From Lachnoanaerobaculum saburreum DSM 3986 (lineage in GTDB: Bacteria; Bacillota; Clostridia; Lachnospirales; Lachnospiraceae): a stretch of 47,822 nt of DNA. Shown piece by piece: positions 4,388 to 12,353 of this stretch. The first letter of the stretch is position 1. Each line of letters starts with the position of its first letter. The stretch lies in contig NZ_GL622296.1 of NCBI RefSeq assembly GCF_000185385.1, positions 157,245 through 205,066 of the forward strand, given 5' to 3'. The notes beneath the pieces were generated by a model that ran no database searches, had not been told where the DNA came from, and saw nothing but the letters and a program-made list of their open reading frames with translations. A program made the position numbers and the translations under genes.

Positions 4388-5586
4388 CTAATTTTTTAAA
4401 ATCATCTCACAAACAAATCCTCCCATCTCCCCCTCATGAAAGGATATTTTCCATTTATGACGGCTTGCCACCTGCTTTACTATTTTTAATCCCAGCCCGT
4501 GATTTCCTTCACTTCTTTCCGTTTCATAACTTTTTTTATTCAGCTTTTTTAAAAGCTCTCTTGAAACTCCCGCTCCATTATCTTCCACACTCAGCACTAT
4601 GGCGTTTTTTTCATTTTTATATAATTTGATTTGAATATTGCAGCCCTTGGGATTATGCTTTATTGAATTATTTAAAAGGTTAATAATTGCCCTTTCTGTA
4701 AAGTCTTCGTTTATTAAGAAGCACTCTTTTTGAAGAGACTCGTCAATATCCAATTCAAAGCTAAAAACATCCTCTTCCAATGCATTTAAAATCTGAGTGA
4801 CACACTTTCTCAGTAATGTACTTATTTGGATATTCTTTTTTTCAAACTTTACACTTCCGTAGTCCAGTTTATTTAAAAAATTTAAATTCTCCACAAGTGT
4901 ACGACATCTTATCCCCTGCTTTTCAATAATTTCAGCCCTTTTTCTTACTTCATAATCTTTGCTTTCTCCCATTATCATTCCGGCATTTCCCAGTATTATA
5001 GCTAAGGGAGTGCGAATATCATGGGAGACTCCGGCAATCCATTACACCCTTCTTCTTCCCTTTGTCTGATTTGCCTTCTGTAAAGTCCCAGGGAAATTAT
5101 AATTAAAAGCACCACATTCCCCAAAATAAGAAACGGTGTCATCTTAATTGACAGCAGCAAAGAATCCTCATAATATTCCAATGTATATTTCCAAATATTT
5201 TTATTCCTATATCCCACCACCAAAAGCCCCGGACTCACTACATAGGTATGTACTTGATAATCATTCAAATAATACCTTGTAAACCTTGCCACATCCTGAA
5301 GTGTATATTCCTTTTCAAGTTCCTTTGGCAGATCTTCACTCCATAAAATATTTCCTGAATTATCCAAAAGCATTGCAAACTCTCCTCTTTCCCTAAGGCT
5401 TTCCACCGCCTCATCTGAGAGCTTATACTTTCCCTCCTCAAATAAAAGATTTTCCATTATATTGACCTTAGGATAATATAATGAAAGAGCGCTTTTATAC
5501 ATAACAATGCCGTAAAGAATTAAATCTATAAATAATAATGCAAATATTGTCATTATTACCAGGATAATTAATCCTAGATTATTCAT
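4388..5586 (-). pseudogene. Sensor histidine kinase, frameshifted and 5'-disrupted
   Basis: Two frames together encode one sensor kinase. The upstream piece (to 5002) has a membrane segment, an extracytoplasmic region of roughly 130 residues and a second membrane segment ending in an arginine-rich linker. The downstream piece carries the HATPase: NLLNNS (N box), VEDNGAG (G1) and NHGLGL (G2). The H-box GVSHDIRTPL is present at about 5000-5030 but only in the downstream frame, directly behind a TAA. One extra base there would rejoin the parts, so this looks like a single-base deletion. The true N-terminus is lost: at 5573 the frame runs into the inverted repeat of the IS1380-family element, which supplies an ATG (5586) and a GGAG (5592-5595). 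No response regulator gene is adjacent. Confidence 0.75.
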
Positions 5587-7215
5587 GGTAACTCCATGAA
5601 AGTGGCTGAAAGACATATTATTACTATATTTTAACTAAATATTGCTTTTCACTTATCAAGTGAATAAAAAAAGAGCGTCCATTTGTGGTAAAATTAAGGT
5701 GCTTTAAACTTAACAAAATCACACAAAGGAGCCCTTTATGAGTATTGTAAACACCTTATCACTTGAAAGCAATAGAAAAATTAAAATTAATTTCGATGGA
5801 GGGGATTTATCCTCCGATGCTGCCTTACTTCTTATAAAAGAATTCGTAAGTAAACTTGGTATTGATAAACTTTTCAGTCAATCATTTAAGACCAATGATT
5901 CTGCATTATTTCGTTATCACACTGATAAAGAAAACCTTTTTCAGATGATATATATGATCATTGCAGGTTATTTTGAAGATGATTCTTCAGATGAACTTAC
6001 AAATGATCCTGTGTTTAAAGCAGTGCTGAATAAAGACACTTTAATCACAACCGACCATTTCAAGATTTTATAATCGAATGGATGAGGATTCTCTGAAACA
6101 GTTCCTTTCTATAAACTAAACCCTTCGAAAGAAAGTTTATAGCATTCAGATGCCGGAAGCTATCATTTTAGATTTGGACTCAACACTTCTTAATGCCTAT
6201 GGCAAACAGGAAGGCAGAGCATTTAACTTCCACTATCAAAGTAACGGTTACCATCTACTTGTTTGCTATGATGGAATCACAGGAGATTTGATTAAAATTC
6301 AGCTTCGCGACGGGACTCAGTATTCAAGCACAGGAGTTGTGGACTTTCTGCAGCCTATACTTGATGAATACCTTGAAGATTTTCCGGAAATTAAACTTTT
6401 ACCTCGTGGAGATAGTGGCTTTGCAACACCAGGTTTATATAAACAGTATGAAGAAAACGGTACCGGCTATGTAATTTGTTTGAAAGAAAATGCTATACTT
6501 CGTGATAAGGCATCATATCTTGTAGATGAAATCACAAAAAACAACAAAGTAGATTATGCTGTTGTTTATGGTGAACTCATGTATCAGGCAAGTCCTTGGC
6601 CTTATGAAAGACGCGCTGTCTGTAAAGTTGAAAAAACTGAAAACCAAATGACTTACATGTATACATTCATTGTTACAAATATGGAGTCATCCCCTGAATA
6701 TCTTATCAAGTTCTATTGCAAAAGAGGCTTGATAGAAAACTTCATAAAGGAAAGTAAAACAGGTTTTGACTTTGCTTCTGTCAGCAGTCATACAAGAATT
6801 GTAAATGCCAACAGGCTTCAACTACATGCACTTGCTTATAACATATTTAATTGGTTTAGACGATTGGCATTATCTGTAAATATGAGAAAACAACGTATTG
6901 ATACTGTTCGTCTAAAACCGCTTAAGATTGCTGCAAAAGTAATTCGTTCAGCAAGGTATGTAACATTCAAGCTGTGTAGCAGTTGCCCATATAAGGATGA
7001 GTTCTATAAGCCCCTATCCAATATCAGCAAGCTATTTATACAGCTTGAATAACAACTAATAATGAACCTTGAGAGCTTAATAACTACTCAAAAACTCTAC
7101 CTAGGGGAAGTCTGCCCATTTTTAGGTGTATTAAGTCAGTTATAGCGTCATGGGTTAAGTTTAAAAATTAATAGCACGGTAATTAATTTAAATATTACAC
7201 CGTGAATAATTCAGG
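5573..7215 (+). mobile_element. IS1380-family insertion sequence, copy 1
   Basis: The ends can be placed by imperfect inverted repeats: left CCTAGATTATTCATGGT at 5573-5589 and right (read inward on the minus strand) CCTGAATTATTCACGGT at 7199-7215, 14 of 17 matching. The 1643-bp length suits the IS1380 family. It contains one transposase gene on the plus strand, now broken. I could not find a convincing target duplication: the left flank ends TTAAT and the right flank begins CTAAG, so the flanks may have been rearranged after insertion. The left end interrupts the histidine kinase gene. Confidence 0.75.
5738..7052 (+). pseudogene. IS1380-family transposase, frameshift plus nonsense
   Basis: The N-terminal third (5738-6073) and the C-terminal two thirds (6150-7052) are in different frames. 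Frame comparison shows the N-terminal reading continues as SQPTISRFYNRMDEDSL in another frame from about 6045, then meets an in-frame TAA near 6114, and reopens with the DDE core DLDSTLLNAYGKQEG. The later acidic positions (PRGDSGFA) and the IENFIKESKTGFDF region are preserved. AAAGGAG precedes the start. Without the two lesions it would be about 437 residues, normal for IS1380 transposases. It is clearly a different lineage from the copy at 8783, roughly 60 percent identical over the N-terminal region by eye. Confidence 0.8.
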
Positions 7216-7280
7216 CTAAGTAAACAATATCAGGTCTTTTAATGGCTTTTTATAGATTTACTAGACCTTGAAATATATAA

Positions 7281-7374: not shown

Positions 7375-8100
7375 CTAATGTAACCAATAAAGACCGGTAG
7401 AAGCATTATTTGTCATAATTCCCTGTACCCTTTGTGCAAAAACCTCATCTTTAGTAAGTAAATCATTCCATTTAACTAAATTTCTATCTTTTTTATTGTT
7501 ATGTAAATCCATTTTCTTATGTGCAACTTTACTATACCCATCTGACTCATTTCCAGAAGTATTCCTGTCTTCAGGTGCAGTTGCATATGCCGCAGCCCAG
7601 CCTTTATTTATTCGTGCAGTCATTAAAGCATTCCAGTATGCATGTCTAAAAGCGTCTGTATTATCACCTAAACCATTATATCCATATAACTCTGCCGTTT
7701 TTGCAACTGCATTGTTTGCCAATTCTTTAGTAATTGCAGCATTTACAGGGTTAGTTGCTATTAATATTTTTTCAGATAAGGTAAGTGCAGTCCATGACTC
7801 ATACCACCCTGCTGGTTGTGCTGTATTACAATACATATCCTCATATTCTTTTAAGATTTGCTCTGGCGATAAATCAGGATTGCTATCTTTTATTTCCTTT
7901 ATTTTATCAACAAAGTCATCATAATCTGCTGGAAAGCCAAGTGCATCAATATCTTCAATAACTGAATATGAATCTCCAACTTGTAATGATTGGTACTCTG
8001 TACTTGTGTTTTCTTCATCAGCATAAATATTATTAGTTATTGGGATTGCAATCATAAAACAACTTAAAGCCGTTACCATAATTTTGCTTATATTTTTCAT
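7375..8100 (-). CDS. Secreted DUF6973-like protein
   Basis: A 241-residue exported protein. The frame opens upstream at 8160, but the ATG at 8100 is preferred: AAAGGA lies upstream and the new N-terminus (MKNISKIMVTALS, then a hydrophobic core ending at YADEE) is a clean Sec signal peptide. The C-terminal half has GDNTDAFRHAYWNALMT followed by a KVAHKKMDLHNNKKDR block, an arrangement of conserved His, Asp and Asn that I associate with DUF6973-type domains of secreted bacterial proteins. Biochemical activity is unknown to me. It follows the lipoprotein gene at 8179-8601 by 78 bases on the same strand. It lies between two IS1380-family elements and may once have been downstream of agrDB; that last point is inference. 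Confidence 0.7.
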   Translation of the reverse strand: MKNISKIMVTALSCFMIAIPITNNIYADEENTSTEYQSLQVGDSYSVIEDIDALGFPADYDDFVDKIKEIKDSNPDLSPEQILKEYEDMYCNTAQPAGWYESWTALTLSEKILIATNPVNAAITKELANNAVAKTAELYGYNGLGDNTDAFRHAYWNALMTARINKGWAAAYATAPEDRNTSGNESDGYSKVAHKKMDLHNNKKDRNLVKWNDLLTKDEVFAQRVQGIMTNNASTGLYWLH

Positions 8101-8178
8101 ATAATCATTATTCCTTTCAATATTAATTTTAAAATTATTATCTAACAAAATATTTATCATAGATAAAATTTGCTTTGT

Positions 8179-8601
8179 CTATAATCTACTTTCTCCATGA
8201 TATACTTCTTCTGCAGTATCACTATTGACATCAACTATTACTTTATCAACATTCTCCTTAAAATTAGGGATATTAACAAATATTTCTGAAGATACTTCAT
8301 CATCGCTGTAAACTGGAATAGCCTTTAAATTAATTTTTAATATACTGTTCTCATATGTTATCACATTTACTTTGAGCTTTGAATAAAAGATAATATCTCC
8401 ATAAGTTCGATAATAAAAATTGTAATTATCACTATTATTTATAATATAATACCTATTATCAATAAGTTGCTTAATATCTACTTCAAATTTATTTTGTTCA
8501 TAATACAAAATAGAACCATTATTTTGTGTTTTTTCACAACCTGATAAATATAAAGCACTTAATAACAAAATTAAAAATAAACTATTCTTATAGAATATCA
8601 T
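8179..8601 (-). CDS. Small lipoprotein of unknown function
   Basis: A protein of 140 residues from the ATG at 8601: MIFYKNSLFLILLLSALYLSGC gives a charged N-region, hydrophobic core and an LSGC lipobox, so it should be lipid-anchored outside the membrane. The rest is Asn/Tyr/Ile-rich and unrecognised. The frame continues upstream to 8697, but those residues are encoded by the terminal repeat of the neighbouring IS element (8618 onward) and are not original. The insertion lies only 16 bases before the ATG and has replaced the normal promoter and ribosome site; no good AGGAGG is left. The gene precedes the DUF6973-like gene and probably formed an operon with it. Confidence 0.6.
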   Translation of the reverse strand: MIFYKNSLFLILLLSALYLSGCEKTQNNGSILYYEQNKFEVDIKQLIDNRYYIINNSDNYNFYYRTYGDIIFYSKLKVNVITYENSILKINLKAIPVYSDDEVSSEIFVNIPNFKENVDKVIVDVNSDTAEEVYHGESRL

Positions 8602-8617
8602 AATTACACCCACTAAT

Positions 8618-9307
8618 CCTAAATTATTCATAGCATAGCTATGTCTGCGGCTGAAAGCCACATAATTACTGCATTTACAAAACTTTCTTACTTTCACCTA
8701 AAAAGTGAATAGAAAAAAGACCTCTTTCTTGGTAAAATTAAGGTGTCAAATCAAAACAATGCCAAGGAAAGGAAGTCCTCTTATGTCAATTTTAAACACT
8801 ATTTCACTTGAAAGCAACAAGAAAATTAAAATAAATTTTAACGGTGGAAATCTCCCTTCTGATGTAGGGCTGCTCCTCATCAAAGAATTTGCTGCAAAGG
8901 TAGGTCTTATAAAGCTTGTGAAAAAGCTCTTCAAAACCAATGACCATACAAACAGCCGTATTCATACAGATTCTGATAACCTTATGCAGATGCTCTACCA
9001 AATTATAGCAGCCTATTTTGAGGATGATTGTGCAGATGAACTGACTAATGACCCGGTATTAACATCTATTTTGGAAAAAGAAGCCTTGGCTTCTCAACCT
9101 ACACTATCTCGTTTTTGGAATAGAATGGACAACGACACTCTTACACAGCTTGATTCTATAAATGCAAAAATGCGTGATATTGTCTATTCTATTAAGGCTC
9201 CGGAGCACATGTTTTTTGACCTTGATTCTACACTGCTTAACACCTACGGCAAGCAGGAAGGCGAAGGTTTTAACTTTCATTATCAGGCTCACGGTTATCA
9301 TCCACTA
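8618..9307 (+). mobile_element. IS1380-family insertion sequence, copy 2, 3'-truncated
   Basis: The left end CCTAAATTATTCATAGC (8618-8634) matches the left end of copy 1 in sequence, and both sit directly after TAAT. The transposase frame then runs in the same orientation but stops matching the family after HGYHPL at about 9307. Beyond that point the sequence is antisense to an agrB N-terminus. The right end and more than half of the transposase are gone, so the junction results from a deletion or recombination that removed IS and agrB sequence together. Confidence 0.7.
8783..9307 (+). pseudogene. IS1380-family transposase, N-terminal fragment
   Basis: The real start is the ATG at 8783, preceded by GGAAAGGAAG; the open frame begins earlier, at 8705, within the IS leader. 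About 175 codons are preserved, up to and including the first catalytic Asp region (FDLDSTLLNTYGKQEG) and NFHYQAHGYHPL. The remaining roughly 260 residues, with the other catalytic positions, are absent. After the junction the frame reads about 25 unrelated residues. It cannot be active. It shares the MSIxNTxSLESNxKIKINF opening with copy 1 but differs at many positions, so the two are separate insertions of related elements. Confidence 0.8.
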
Positions 9308-9415
9308 CAGCTCTTATCATTTGTGTTAATCCAAATGCATAAATTTCCTTATCATCTTCCAGAAAAATATTATTTTCGATCACATATTGTATGATTTTTT
9401 TGATAGCCTTTCCAT
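9308..9415 (-). pseudogene. agrB: agrB, 5' fragment cut by the IS element
   Basis: On the minus strand an ATG (9413-9415) three bases after the agrD stop opens a frame of 36 codons before the IS junction. It contains ERLSKKIIQYVIENNIFLED and then DKEIYAFGL, the N-terminal signature of AgrB, the membrane peptidase that removes the AgrD C-terminal tail and helps cyclise the pheromone. The catalytic His and Cys residues of AgrB lie further downstream and are missing, so this locus cannot make mature peptide unless another AgrB exists in the genome. The tight coupling to agrD supports a former agrD-agrB operon. Confidence 0.75.
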
Positions 9416-9418
9416 AAC

Positions 9419-9562
9419 TTAAAATTTACGCAACTTTTTCACTTTGTCAGGTAACTCAGGCTGATGATAAATAAAAGCACACGCTGAATTTGCATTAAAA
9501 AGTGCAAATACAAATGAGCATAGAGCAATGCCTTTACTTATTAGCAATAAATACTTTTTCAT
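9419..9562 (-). CDS. agrD: AgrD-type cyclic (thio)lactone autoinducer prepeptide
   Basis: A 47-codon gene. The ATG at 9562 follows AAGGAGG (9571-9577) with eight bases between. The product has the three AgrD parts: an amphipathic N-terminal leader (MKKYLLLISKGIALCSFVFA), a central region NSACAFIYHQ, and an acidic, Pro-containing recognition tail QPELPDKVKKLRKF. Family knowledge places the ring between the Cys and the residue four positions later, predicting a CAFIY macrocycle (residues 28-32) with a short N-terminal tail. The stop is followed within three bases by the agrB start. A two-site LytTR box and a -10 element lie upstream. The receptor AgrC and regulator AgrA are encoded 0.6-2.6 kb upstream on the same strand. 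Confidence 0.85.
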   Translation of the reverse strand: MKKYLLLISKGIALCSFVFALFNANSACAFIYHQPELPDKVKKLRKF

Positions 9563-9607
9563 AGTTAAATCCTCCTTTCAATATTCTTTTAATAAGTTAC
9601 GCTTTGG

Positions 9608-9653
9608 ATTATACTAAATAATGATGTACTGTGCGAAAAATGTAATGAACTGT
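9608..9653 (-). promoter_or_regulatory. agrDB promoter with LytTR (AgrA-type) direct repeats
   Basis: Read on the minus strand, ACAGTTCAT (9653-9645) and ACAGTACAT (9632-9624) form two 9-bp direct repeats separated by exactly 12 bases. The first fits the published LytTR-family pattern [TA][AC][CA]GTTN[AG][TG] fully and the second differs at one position. A third, weaker TTCATTACA copy lies 22 bases further upstream. A TATAAT -10 element follows at 9613-9608 without a good -35, as expected for an activator-dependent promoter. The agrD ribosome site starts 31 bases further on. The likely regulator is the LytTR protein encoded at 11468-12190. Confidence 0.75.
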
Positions 9654-9905
9654 ATGGTTATTTGTAATGAAATGCATTTTTTATAAAAATAATAATCCCC
9701 ATACTATAAATATTTTTATTTACACAAAAAGCATTAATATACCGCAAATATCTCCATCCAAATAATGCATCAATGTGAATAAAATGTCTTTCTATGAAAT
9801 AGTTGGGCTGTATGTTGATATAAATATTAAAGGGAAGTAAATTCATAAAAATTCAAAGTTCAAAAAGTTACTATATACCATGATATTCATATATTTATTA
9901 ATAGG
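9654..9905. other. AT-rich spacer between the two agr transcripts
   Basis: Apart from the third LytTR-like half site next to 9654, I see nothing supportable. A 62-codon minus-strand frame (9846-9658) has no ribosome site, lies between a terminator and a promoter, and ends inside the promoter region, so I do not call it. Confidence 0.4.
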
Positions 9906-9928
9906 AAAAAGGGAAGGTTACCCTTCCC
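9906..9928 (-). terminator. Terminator of the agrA-agrC transcript
   Basis: GGGAAGG/CCTTCCC (9912-9918 with 9923-9929, loop TTAC) forms a strong stem that on the minus strand is followed by TTTTTCC. It lies about 45 bases after the stop of the small ORF at 9974-10138 and separates agrAC from the agrDB promoter. Confidence 0.8.
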
Positions 9929-9973
9929 ATATCTTAAACATCATTCTAAAACTTAGGCAAAACTTGACATACT

Positions 9974-10138
9974 CTAATATTCTTTAATTATACCCTCTTT
10001 AGATTTCGGCAATATAGCTACATTTATTTTGTTTGTAAAATCACCTATTCCATTTTCTATAAGCATCACGAACTTTCTGAATGATTCTTGTGTTAATAAA
10101 TTATTTCTCTTGAAAGCCTTTCTCATTGATTTATTCAT
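9974..10138 (-). CDS. Small basic protein downstream of agrC
   Basis: A frame of 54 codons (ATG 10138, TAG 9974-9976) that lies 61 bases after agrC and directly before the strong terminator at 9906-9928. The product begins MNKSMRKAFKRNNLL and is rich in Lys, Arg, Asn and Ile; no signal peptide or family is recognisable. The ribosome site is weak (AAGGAAATC about 30 bases upstream, too far), with a possible TTG start three codons earlier. The placement inside the transcript supports it being real, but coding evidence is modest. Confidence 0.4.
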   Translation of the reverse strand: MNKSMRKAFKRNNLLTQESFRKFVMLIENGIGDFTNKINVAILPKSKEGIIKEY

Positions 10139-10199
10139 TTTATACAATCAATAATTATAATTTGATTTCCTTGGAAATATCCTTTATCTTTTTCTTTTA

Positions 10200-11465
10200 T
10201 CAGCAATATAAAATCACTAAAACTACAAATAGATTATCTTCATAATCTATTTGCATAATGCCATTATATCTTTCTGCTACTTCCCTTACGCTTTCTAATC
10301 CAATGCCATGACCTTGTTTTTCCTTTTTGGTTGTCTGAAGTTTTCCTTGGGATTTGACTATATTTTTATATGAATTTTCTATTTGTAAAATTAGCCTCCC
10401 TTTTTTATATTTCAAATTTATTTTTAATTCTTTTCTATCCGACTCTTTTACAGCTCTGACTGCATTATCCAACAAATTTCCAAGCGCCACTGTCATATCC
10501 ACATCTGATATTTCTAACTTCTTAGGAATACAAACATCAATATATAAATTTATATCATTAATATTTCTCAATTTGTAATTTATAATACTATCCACTACTA
10601 AATTTCCGGATTTACACACTTCTTCTTTTTTATCTATTTTTGATAATAAAGTATCCAAGTAATCTCGGTATGAATCTATTTCTCCTTTTTCATATAACGA
10701 TTTCAACATAAATAAATGATTTTGTATATCATGTCTAATCAAAGAGATATTTTCATTATTGGCTTGTATCATTTTTAGTTGTTGTAAGTATGCTTCATCT
10801 TGCTTTTGTAAAAGAAGCTTTTTATTTTTCTCCTGCATTATGGAAACAACATGGTTATATAATTGAAAACTCACTATATTGATTATAGCAATGGATAGCA
10901 GTACAATTAATATATGCAGTTGTTCAGAGCCTGTTGCTATATTAAGAAATAAAATCATTACAACCAAACTTGCAACCGGTATACTTACAACTCCTATCCA
11001 ATATAGAGGAGATATTTCTCCTGATTTTTTTATATTGAATTTTCTTTCAGAAAGAATCAATGCTACTATATACACCAATACTTTCACACAAATAATAAGA
11101 TAAACAGAATGCAACTCCTGTACTTTAAAAATGAATATCTTTTTATATTCAAACAAAGACATAACCATTATTTCAATACCAAAGATAATCAAATAAACAT
11201 ATACCGTAGCTGTTATATGGCGCTTTAATGTTCCGCTATAATTGAGTGTTATAGCAAAAATACTTATTATGTTAAATGAAAGAAGAACTACTGGAACCGG
11301 AAAGAAAGTAAAAATCAGAACACTCAAAATATAATATATAACATATGACAGTACCTCAACACATTTATAGATGTTTTCTCTTTCAAAAAATATAGATATA
11401 AGTTTAAAAATTGAAAAAGTTCCCAATATGTTACTGACTAAAAATACACTATGTACTAAACTCAC
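10200..11465 (-). CDS. agrC: AgrC-like GHKL sensor histidine kinase
   Basis: A 421-residue membrane receptor kinase with a GTG start. Residues 1-205 are strongly hydrophobic with about six membrane segments, the AgrC sensor pattern. A coiled linker (210-235) leads to the H-box LIRHDIQNHL with the phospho-accepting H245, then the N-box ALGNLLDNAV (N330, N334) and the G-box GHGIGL (385-390) of a HATPase_c_5/GHKL domain. The agrA stop and the agrC GTG are separated by only a couple of bases, so the pair is translationally coupled. The expected ligand is the peptide encoded at 9419-9562. The protein looks intact, so the receiver side of the system could still respond to pheromone from other cells. 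Confidence 0.88.
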   Translation of the reverse strand: MSLVHSVFLVSNILGTFSIFKLISIFFERENIYKCVEVLSYVIYYILSVLIFTFFPVPVVLLSFNIISIFAITLNYSGTLKRHITATVYVYLIIFGIEIMVMSLFEYKKIFIFKVQELHSVYLIICVKVLVYIVALILSERKFNIKKSGEISPLYWIGVVSIPVASLVVMILFLNIATGSEQLHILIVLLSIAIINIVSFQLYNHVVSIMQEKNKKLLLQKQDEAYLQQLKMIQANNENISLIRHDIQNHLFMLKSLYEKGEIDSYRDYLDTLLSKIDKKEEVCKSGNLVVDSIINYKLRNINDINLYIDVCIPKKLEISDVDMTVALGNLLDNAVRAVKESDRKELKINLKYKKGRLILQIENSYKNIVKSQGKLQTTKKEKQGHGIGLESVREVAERYNGIMQIDYEDNLFVVLVILYC

Positions 11466-11467
11466 TA

Positions 11468-12190
11468 TTATAATCCTTTCCTCTCAAACATCATCTGTAA
11501 CTTTCTTATTTCTTTTCTTTTACTCCTGCTTATCGGGATAATATCTCCATTTGACATTATAAGTTCTTCATATTTAAAGCAAGCTATAAGCTCATAATTT
11601 ACAAGATAACTTCTATGTGGATATATGAAAAAATCCGGTAACACTTTACTCAATTCTTGGATATTATCATAAAATGTGTATTGCATTTTGCAACTTACTA
11701 AACTGATTTCTCTGCCTTTACTTTCAAAGTACAATATGTCTTTATATGGCACTTTTACTGTGTTCCTGAGATTTTTAAATTCAAAGATTTTATTTTCCTT
11801 TCCAGAGATTTTAATTGCTAATTTTATGTCATTTAGAAGTTTTGAAACATCAATTGGCTTTTGAAGAAAATGCAAAGGTTGTACATCAAACAGTTGCCTG
11901 TCATAATTATTCTTAGACGAAATATATACTATTTGAGTTATATAATCGTCCATTTCATCTCTAATAATATGCCCTATCTCCACACCATTTATCTTACCTC
12001 CAAGTTCAATATCCAAAAAAATCAAATCATATAGATTCCCTTCCCCTATATCGGATATTAAGGCATCTCCACTATAAAATATATCAACGCTAATATTCTC
12101 ATGTAAAACTCCCTTTGCTTTACTTAAAATAATTTCTTTAAGTTCATCACATGTAGCCTTAATATCATCACAAACAGCAATCTTAAACAT
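11468..12190 (-). CDS. agrA: AgrA-like LytTR response regulator
   Basis: A 240-residue regulator. The frame begins at 12223, but the ATG at 12190 follows GGAG with suitable spacing and starts with the usual MFKIAVCDD. A receiver domain (1-125) has the acidic pair D8-D9, the phospho-acceptor D60 (LIFLDIE) and Lys in LQKP. A C-terminal LytTR DNA-binding domain (about 140-238) carries IYPHRSYLVN and ISRSKRKEI. AgrA-type proteins activate agr transcription by binding paired 9-bp repeats; such a site stands before agrD at 9624-9653. It is the first gene of its transcript, followed by agrC. Confidence 0.9.
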   Translation of the reverse strand: MFKIAVCDDIKATCDELKEIILSKAKGVLHENISVDIFYSGDALISDIGEGNLYDLIFLDIELGGKINGVEIGHIIRDEMDDYITQIVYISSKNNYDRQLFDVQPLHFLQKPIDVSKLLNDIKLAIKISGKENKIFEFKNLRNTVKVPYKDILYFESKGREISLVSCKMQYTFYDNIQELSKVLPDFFIYPHRSYLVNYELIACFKYEELIMSNGDIIPISRSKRKEIRKLQMMFERKGL

Positions 12191-12249: not shown

Positions 12250-12278
12250 TATATAGATTATATCACAGCCAAAATCAA
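12250..12278 (-). promoter_or_regulatory. Probable sigma-A promoter of agrAC
   Basis: On the minus strand TTGATT (12278-12273) and TATATA (12255-12250) are separated by 17 bases and lie 60 bases before the agrA start. A second TATAAT is close by at a worse spacing. Confidence 0.45.
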
Positions 12279-12353
12279 TGATATAGATAAACAAATTAAT
12301 TCTCTAATCCTTTGTTAAAAAGTGTTGCAGTACATCAGAATAGCTGTAAAAAT

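What the first reader, a model, noticed from the sequence alone, without database searches (positions are those of the whole stretch)
9308..12190. An agr quorum-sensing locus with an unlisted agrD gene and an IS-truncated agrB
A 47-codon gene at 9419-9562 has the leader, CAFIY core and QPELPD tail of AgrD. It is followed by an agrB N-terminus of 36 codons that ends at an IS1380-family element, and is preceded by agrC and agrA, both apparently intact. The strain would be a receiver that cannot make its own signal from this locus. AgrB and AgrD features are established knowledge; loss of signalling is inference.
Basis: partly seen in the sequence, partly recalled or inferred. Interest (0 to 1): 0.75.

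Follow-up and report, generated by a model that had tools for sequence, protein, structure and literature searches.

The report
Decayed agr signalling genes, orphan pheromone
This oral bacterium keeps what look like the receiver and the raw pheromone gene of a cell-to-cell signalling system, but the gene that would make the active signal is dead, and the dead stretch appears to have spread as one piece between related species.

Summary
The agr locus is real: agrA (12190-11468), agrC (11465-10200) and a clear agrD (9562-9419; NCBIfam AgrD 51 bits, cut-off 19). No other AgrB was found in the 3.08-Mb assembly. Two readings need correcting. (1) The agrB remnant is not one 36-codon frame: its ATG frame stops after 11 codons and the AgrB-like frame lacks an ATG start. 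The same break occurs in Lachnoanaerobaculum gingivalis, whose copy runs on past the junction, so it predates the truncation. (2) The IS did not insert into agrB: only its left 690 bp is present, and in L. gingivalis the IS end lies downstream of agrB, so a deletion made the junction. The same junction, 98.7-99.1% identical, lies at other sites in two further species whose mnmA is 92-94% identical: a shared, recently spread segment with an orphan agrD. A 35-bp AgrA-box-like site precedes agrD. Of 52 sampled family genomes with AgrD, 50 have AgrB; this one does not. Best reading: a signal-mute strain with a possibly working receiver. Listening is untested.

The parts
11468..12190 (-). agrA: response regulator with LytTR DNA-binding domain
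   Evidence: Pfam LytTR and Response_reg; 68-69% identical to AgrA of two relatives
10200..11465 (-). agrC: GHKL-type sensor histidine kinase, open frame, GTG start
   Evidence: Pfam HATPase_c_5; 59% identical to AgrC of G001 with the same start region and 60% to a 5'-shortened ORF of G003
9974..10147 (-). 57-codon ORF of unknown origin
   Evidence: no family above cut-off; outside the window's own DNA only blastn matches at E 0.4 and no tblastn match
9911..9928 (-). terminator-like hairpin between agrC and the agrD promoter region
   Evidence: 3 found in the region scanned, 1.6 expected from shuffles, so weak
9634..9677 (-). AgrA-box-like direct repeat (two 15-mers, 22 bp start to start, 87% alike); the conserved 35-mer is 9634-9668
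   Evidence: binding not tested
9608..9637 (-). promoter-like hexamers (TTCGCA, 18, TATAAT) overlapping the end of the box
   Evidence: consensus match only (43 such sites in the region, 37 expected)
9419..9562 (-). agrD, 47 codons, core SACAFIY, tail HQPELPD
   Evidence: TIGR04223 51 bits
9306..9415 (-). agrB remnant: frame-broken start and about 31 AgrB-like residues, cut at the junction
8619..9308 (+). left 690 bp of an IS1380-family element; right part missing
   Evidence: NF033539 positions 1-165 of 419; 91% to G000:C1:45852-46529, where the element runs on
8179..8697 (-). 172-codon ORF, probable lipoprotein (LSGC lipobox); its first codons lie in the IS end
   Evidence: lipobox recognised by eye
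7375..8160 (-). secreted-looking protein with DUF6973 domain, downstream of the segment
   Evidence: PF22322 72.3 bits; signal peptide by eye
8093..9574 (.). segment shared with G003 and G005 at other genome sites (98.7-99.1% identical)

Best explanation
This is a decaying agr-type quorum-sensing locus of a Lachnoanaerobaculum species. agrA and agrC are open; the only agrD belongs to what is, in L. gingivalis, a second agrD-agrB module. Its agrB lost its reading frame in an ancestor of both copies and, in the window's version, lost all but its start in a deletion that also removed the right part of an IS1380-family element lying downstream. The resulting piece (agrD, agrB stub, IS left part, lipoprotein gene) then spread between species. 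With no AgrB found in the genome, AgrD should stay unprocessed, so the strain is signal-mute. If the receiver works, signal from neighbours would act through the AgrA-box to raise agrD and perhaps the lipoprotein and DUF6973 genes behind it. Shown: gene content, frame break, junction, its sharing between species, no AgrB found. Inferred: deletion history and transfer, muteness, listening, read-through into the cargo genes.
For: AgrD profile match. No AgrB by profile or by a relative's protein, except the stub. Frame break identical in the window, G001, G003 and G005 copies. G001 keeps a longer, broken agrB2 with about 109 bp of the IS left end beyond it. Same junction 98.7% identical in G003 and 99.1% in G005, while mnmA is 93.9% and 91.8%. 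The G005 copy sits where G004, and G001 for at least the roughly 90 bp next to the junction, have uninterrupted sequence. Strict 35-mer box: 6 exact sites in 4 of 6 genomes, five before an agrD and one in G004 where agrD is missing; none with 1-3 mismatches; control 0. Base rate: 50 of 52 AgrD genomes have AgrB.
Against: The assembly is 97.3% complete in 36 contigs, so a missed agrB is not wholly excluded. agrC-agrA is only 70% identical in DNA to L. gingivalis while the agrD side is 98%, so this AgrC and this AgrD may never have been partners. Signalling by AgrC is untested, and another peptidase is not excluded. The measure of relatedness rests mainly on one gene, mnmA; two other queries gave 81% (G000-G001) and 90% (G003) or 76% (others). 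The IS left part alone also occurs at 99% in G003 and 96% in G001 as separate copies, so its similarity by itself proves nothing; the flanks and the junction do.
Confidence: 0.7

Rival explanations
1. Simple IS insertion into a working agrB in this strain, as first read: one recent transposition silenced the signal.
For: IS sequence abuts the agrB stub.
Against: IS right part missing; frame already broken upstream; same break in L. gingivalis without the truncation; same junction in two other species.
Confidence: 0.04
2. Pure relic: agrA and agrC are no longer used either, and the whole locus is on its way out, as in G004 where agrA and agrC are reduced to one short ORF.
For: G004 relic ORF of 95 codons with an 80-residue AgrC match; G002 and G005 have no AgrC match; the few changes in the shared segment show no clear constraint.
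Against: agrA and agrC are open over their full length and similar in length to relatives.
Confidence: 0.22
3. The orphan agrD is a mobile pheromone gene that borrows the host's AgrB in trans; in this strain it has lost its helper.
For: G003 carries the orphan agrD next to relaxase and NikA-like genes and elsewhere an intact AgrB; in G001 an intact AgrB is encoded near the broken one; a distant relative, G059, has ten ORF-RR-AgrD triads without an AgrB beside them.
Against: G005 has the orphan agrD with no AgrB, AgrC or box match; too few changes to show selection.
Confidence: 0.12
4. Assembly or homopolymer sequencing error produced the frame break or the junction.
For: The break lies at a run of A.
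Against: The stretch is identical in four assemblies (G000, G001, G003, G005), and the junction in three.
Confidence: 0.02

Closest known systems
agr2 (agrACDB) of Clostridioides difficile R20291
   Same: A-C-D-B gene order, LytTR regulator, short AgrD of 46 residues (PMC3754575, passages seen)
   Different: There agrB is part of the locus; here no working AgrB was found and agrD belongs to a shared segment
Frameshifted agr operons of Staphylococcus aureus
   Same: Frame breaks in agr genes are common there, over 5% of genomes (PMC8768832, abstract seen)
   Different: That abstract suggests such strains are evolutionarily short-lived; here one frame-broken module is shared by four species
agr3 genes of phage phiCDHM1
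   Same: Partial agr set proposed to move horizontally (PMC3901668, abstract seen)
   Different: The phage carries agrD, agrB and agrC; here agrD travels with a dead agrB and an IS piece
L. gingivalis KCOM 2030 agr locus (G001)
   Same: Has the same second module, 98% identical in DNA
   Different: Also keeps a first module with open agrD and agrB; its agrC-agrA is only 70% identical

Membership tests
agr quorum-sensing system | AgrD propeptide with core Cys and charged tail | tested here: met
   TIGR04223 51 bits, cut-off 19
agr quorum-sensing system | AgrB peptidase present and intact | tested here: not met
   0 matches to PF04647 in the genome at E 0.001; only the stub by protein search
agr quorum-sensing system | AgrC-type histidine kinase near agrD | tested here: met
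   GHKL domain; 59-60% identity to relatives' AgrC
agr quorum-sensing system | AgrA-type LytTR regulator | tested here: met
   Domains; the NCBIfam AgrA equivalog gives 46 bits, far below its cut-off of 400, so not the staphylococcal equivalog
agr quorum-sensing system | AgrA binding repeats at the agr promoter | tested here: inconclusive
   Conserved direct repeat found; binding not tested
agr quorum-sensing system | Secreted cyclic peptide activates AgrC | not testable with these tools
   Needs chemistry and a reporter
IS1380-family insertion sequence | Complete transposase and both ends | tested here: not met
   117 bits against a cut-off of 180, profile positions 1-165 of 419 only; element runs on in another copy

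The most novel reading that the evidence does not exclude
The orphan agrD segment is a transferable pheromone gene that lost its own AgrB because it can use the AgrB of whichever host it enters, adding a second signal or jamming the local one; the window strain is a listener left without a helper.
Probability: 0.12. Interest if true: 0.62.

Novelty: new variant of a known kind. Interest (0 to 1): 0.42.

Why it matters
It gives a natural case, in human oral bacteria, of an agr receiver in a genome where no AgrB was found, and of a broken agr module found in four species rather than in one strain. G003, which encodes an AgrD with the same CAFIY core and an intact AgrB, is a natural candidate sender, so listening across species becomes testable.

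Tried and rejected
Rejected: IS insertion as the cause. Rejected: a second agrB elsewhere. Led nowhere: plasmid collection, no match; AgrC in genome contigs, 52 stretches matched a pattern, none encoded a relative; box in viral contigs, 0 exact matches; origin of the 57-codon ORF; solved structures for the DUF6973 protein, 0 at E up to 1. Papers: eight searches; Lachnoanaerobaculum with accessory gene regulator gave 0; with quorum sensing 20, none with agr in its title (listing only). Three papers were opened: passages of PMC3754575, abstracts and outlines of PMC3901668 and PMC8768832; the others were seen as listings.

Cautions. G003's own agrC is frame-broken, in a T-rich place of a draft, so possibly a sequencing error. 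In some searches the 200 family genomes are taken to be the same set from their matching handles; one search scored at most 15 candidates a genome (16 found, 15 scored for G000; one search scored all 20). The other AgrD+ AgrB- genome of the sample, G068, is 89% complete with its AgrD at base 64 of a contig. G005, outside the sample, also has this AgrD and no AgrB. Labels given by eye or recall, from no call: IS66-like, IS110-like, lipobox, signal peptide, gene name mnmA, AgrA repeats in other species.

Full report
What is there. On the minus strand lie agrA (12190-11468), agrC (11465-10200), a 57-codon ORF of unknown origin, a terminator-like hairpin (9928-9911), an AgrA-box-like repeat (9677-9634), agrD (9562-9419) and an agrB stub (9415 to about 9306). 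AgrD matches the NCBIfam AgrD model at 51 bits against a cut-off of 19; the Pfam staphylococcal AgrD model stays below its cut-off. AgrC and AgrA carry the expected domains and are 59-60% and 68-69% identical to those of two relatives, one of the AgrC rows being a 5'-shortened ORF. The AgrB stub alone is a weak profile match (17.9 bits, cut-off 23), but its DNA is 98% identical to the start of a longer copy in L. gingivalis, which scores as AgrB over its cut-off in spite of stops (31.2 bits).

The genome and its relatives. The window lies in a 3.04-Mb contig of a 3.08-Mb assembly, 97.3% complete, 36 contigs. So the window is taken to be from the oral genus Lachnoanaerobaculum; the species was not determined. 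Of the six genus genomes held, AgrB is found in 2 (G001, G003) and AgrC in 4 (G000, G001, G003 and an 80-residue remnant in G004).

No AgrB found. The AgrB profile finds nothing in the own genome, and an intact relative's AgrB finds only the stub. In 200 genomes of the family, 52 have AgrD, and 50 of these 52 have an AgrB match. The two without are this genome and G068, whose AgrD is at a contig edge of an 89% complete assembly. G005, outside that sample, also has AgrD and no AgrB.

The agrB stub was broken before it was cut. The ATG frame at 9415 ends after 11 codons, and the AgrB-like frame has no ATG at its start, only a GTG further in. The copies in the window, G001, G003 and G005 are identical across this place. 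In L. gingivalis the copy continues past the window's junction, with further stops. So the loss of frame is older than the truncation.

The junction is a deletion, not an insertion. The transposase sequence in the window covers the first 165 of 419 profile positions and stops at the agrB stub; a copy elsewhere in the genome, with a 414-codon ORF, runs on beyond that point. In L. gingivalis about 109 bp of the same IS end lie downstream of the agrB copy, at the same flank. The simplest history is an IS downstream of agrB and two separate deletions; this is inference, and the order of IS arrival and frame break is not known.

The segment is in other species at other sites. Window 7887-9865 is 98.7% identical to G003:C4 and window 8093-9574 is 99.1% identical to G005:C1, both with the same junction. 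mnmA is 93.9% and 91.8% identical between the same genomes. Two further yardsticks: a 2.4-kb query with mnmA and its neighbour gave 81% for G000 against G001, and a gene at window 16.8-17.9 kb is 90% in G003 and 76% in the other four. In G003 the copy lies between IS66-like genes (by eye) and relaxase and NikA-like genes, and the relaxase ORF runs into it. In G005 it lies between a NUDIX gene and a CAP-domain gene; G004 has both genes without the segment, and G001 has the CAP side and about 90 bp of the other side uninterrupted, its NUDIX match lying elsewhere. G005 has no AgrC, AgrB or box match. The IS left part also occurs alone at 99% in G003 and 96% in G001, so the case for transfer rests on the junction and flanks.

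Two modules. L. gingivalis has agrA-agrC-agrD1-agrB1 with an open AgrB, three secreted-looking genes (by eye; one weak DUF5643 match), then the second agrD2-agrB2 module and the lipoprotein and DUF6973 genes. The window's agrD side corresponds to module 2 (98% in DNA), while its agrC-agrA is 70% identical in DNA to L. gingivalis. The window locus is thus a mosaic, and its AgrC and AgrD need not be old partners.

The box. A 35-bp pattern taken from four agrD upstream regions occurs six times, always exactly, in 4 of the 6 genus genomes: five before an agrD and one in G004, where no agrD follows but a lipoprotein gene does. No site with one to three mismatches was listed, and the reversed control gave none. 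This suggests a regulator with a narrow, local target; weaker sites would be missed, and binding was not tested.

How it most likely works. AgrD should stay unprocessed without AgrB, so the strain should be mute. If AgrC still binds a CAFIY-type peptide, signal made by neighbours such as oral taxon 107 (own AgrD core CAFIY, intact AgrB) could raise transcription from the box. Long-term dN/dS of agrA and agrC is 0.11-0.16 against two relatives, with saturated dS, which cannot tell whether they are still used. The changes in agrD and the lipoprotein gene among the shared copies are too few to show constraint or its absence.

Compared with what is known. The A-C-D-B order is that of agr2 of C. 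difficile (passages of PMC3754575). Broken agr operons are common in S. aureus, where the abstract of PMC8768832 suggests they are evolutionarily short-lived. A partial agr set on a phage is known (abstract of PMC3901668). What is less usual here is that one broken module with an open agrD is found in four species, and that an AgrD-bearing genome lacks a detectable AgrB.

Noticed in passing
G059 loci L093-L104, L105, L106: A distant family member has 13 AgrD matches. In 10 of 13 a response-regulator-like ORF and a further ORF lie just upstream on the same strand, with no AgrB match on those contigs; LytTR regulators were confirmed in the 6 tested and GHKL kinases in the 2 tested. It has two AgrB genes: L105 with no AgrD seen by eye among ATG ORFs, L106 beside a weak AgrD (17.2 bits, cut-off 19).
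   Followed up: partly
L019 6436-9131: In oral taxon 107 the agrD-agrB genes are followed by a radical SAM/SPASM protein and a 45-residue Cys- and Gly-rich peptide (thiocillin-family RiPP model 21.9 bits, cut-off 25): a possible agr-linked RiPP cluster.
   Followed up: partly
L020 5494-5781: G004 has a 95-codon ORF that joins about 20 residues like the AgrA start (by eye) to an AgrC-like end, with the box kept before a lipoprotein gene.
   Followed up: partly
window 5570-7220: A second IS1380-family element whose transposase is split into two ORFs (5738-6073 and 6150-7052).
   Followed up: no
window 12251-12297: A 47-bp stretch, 91% identical to L021 4433-4479, which lies in ORFs that look IS110-like by eye, just upstream of agrA; possible IS remnant at the other edge of the locus.
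   Followed up: no
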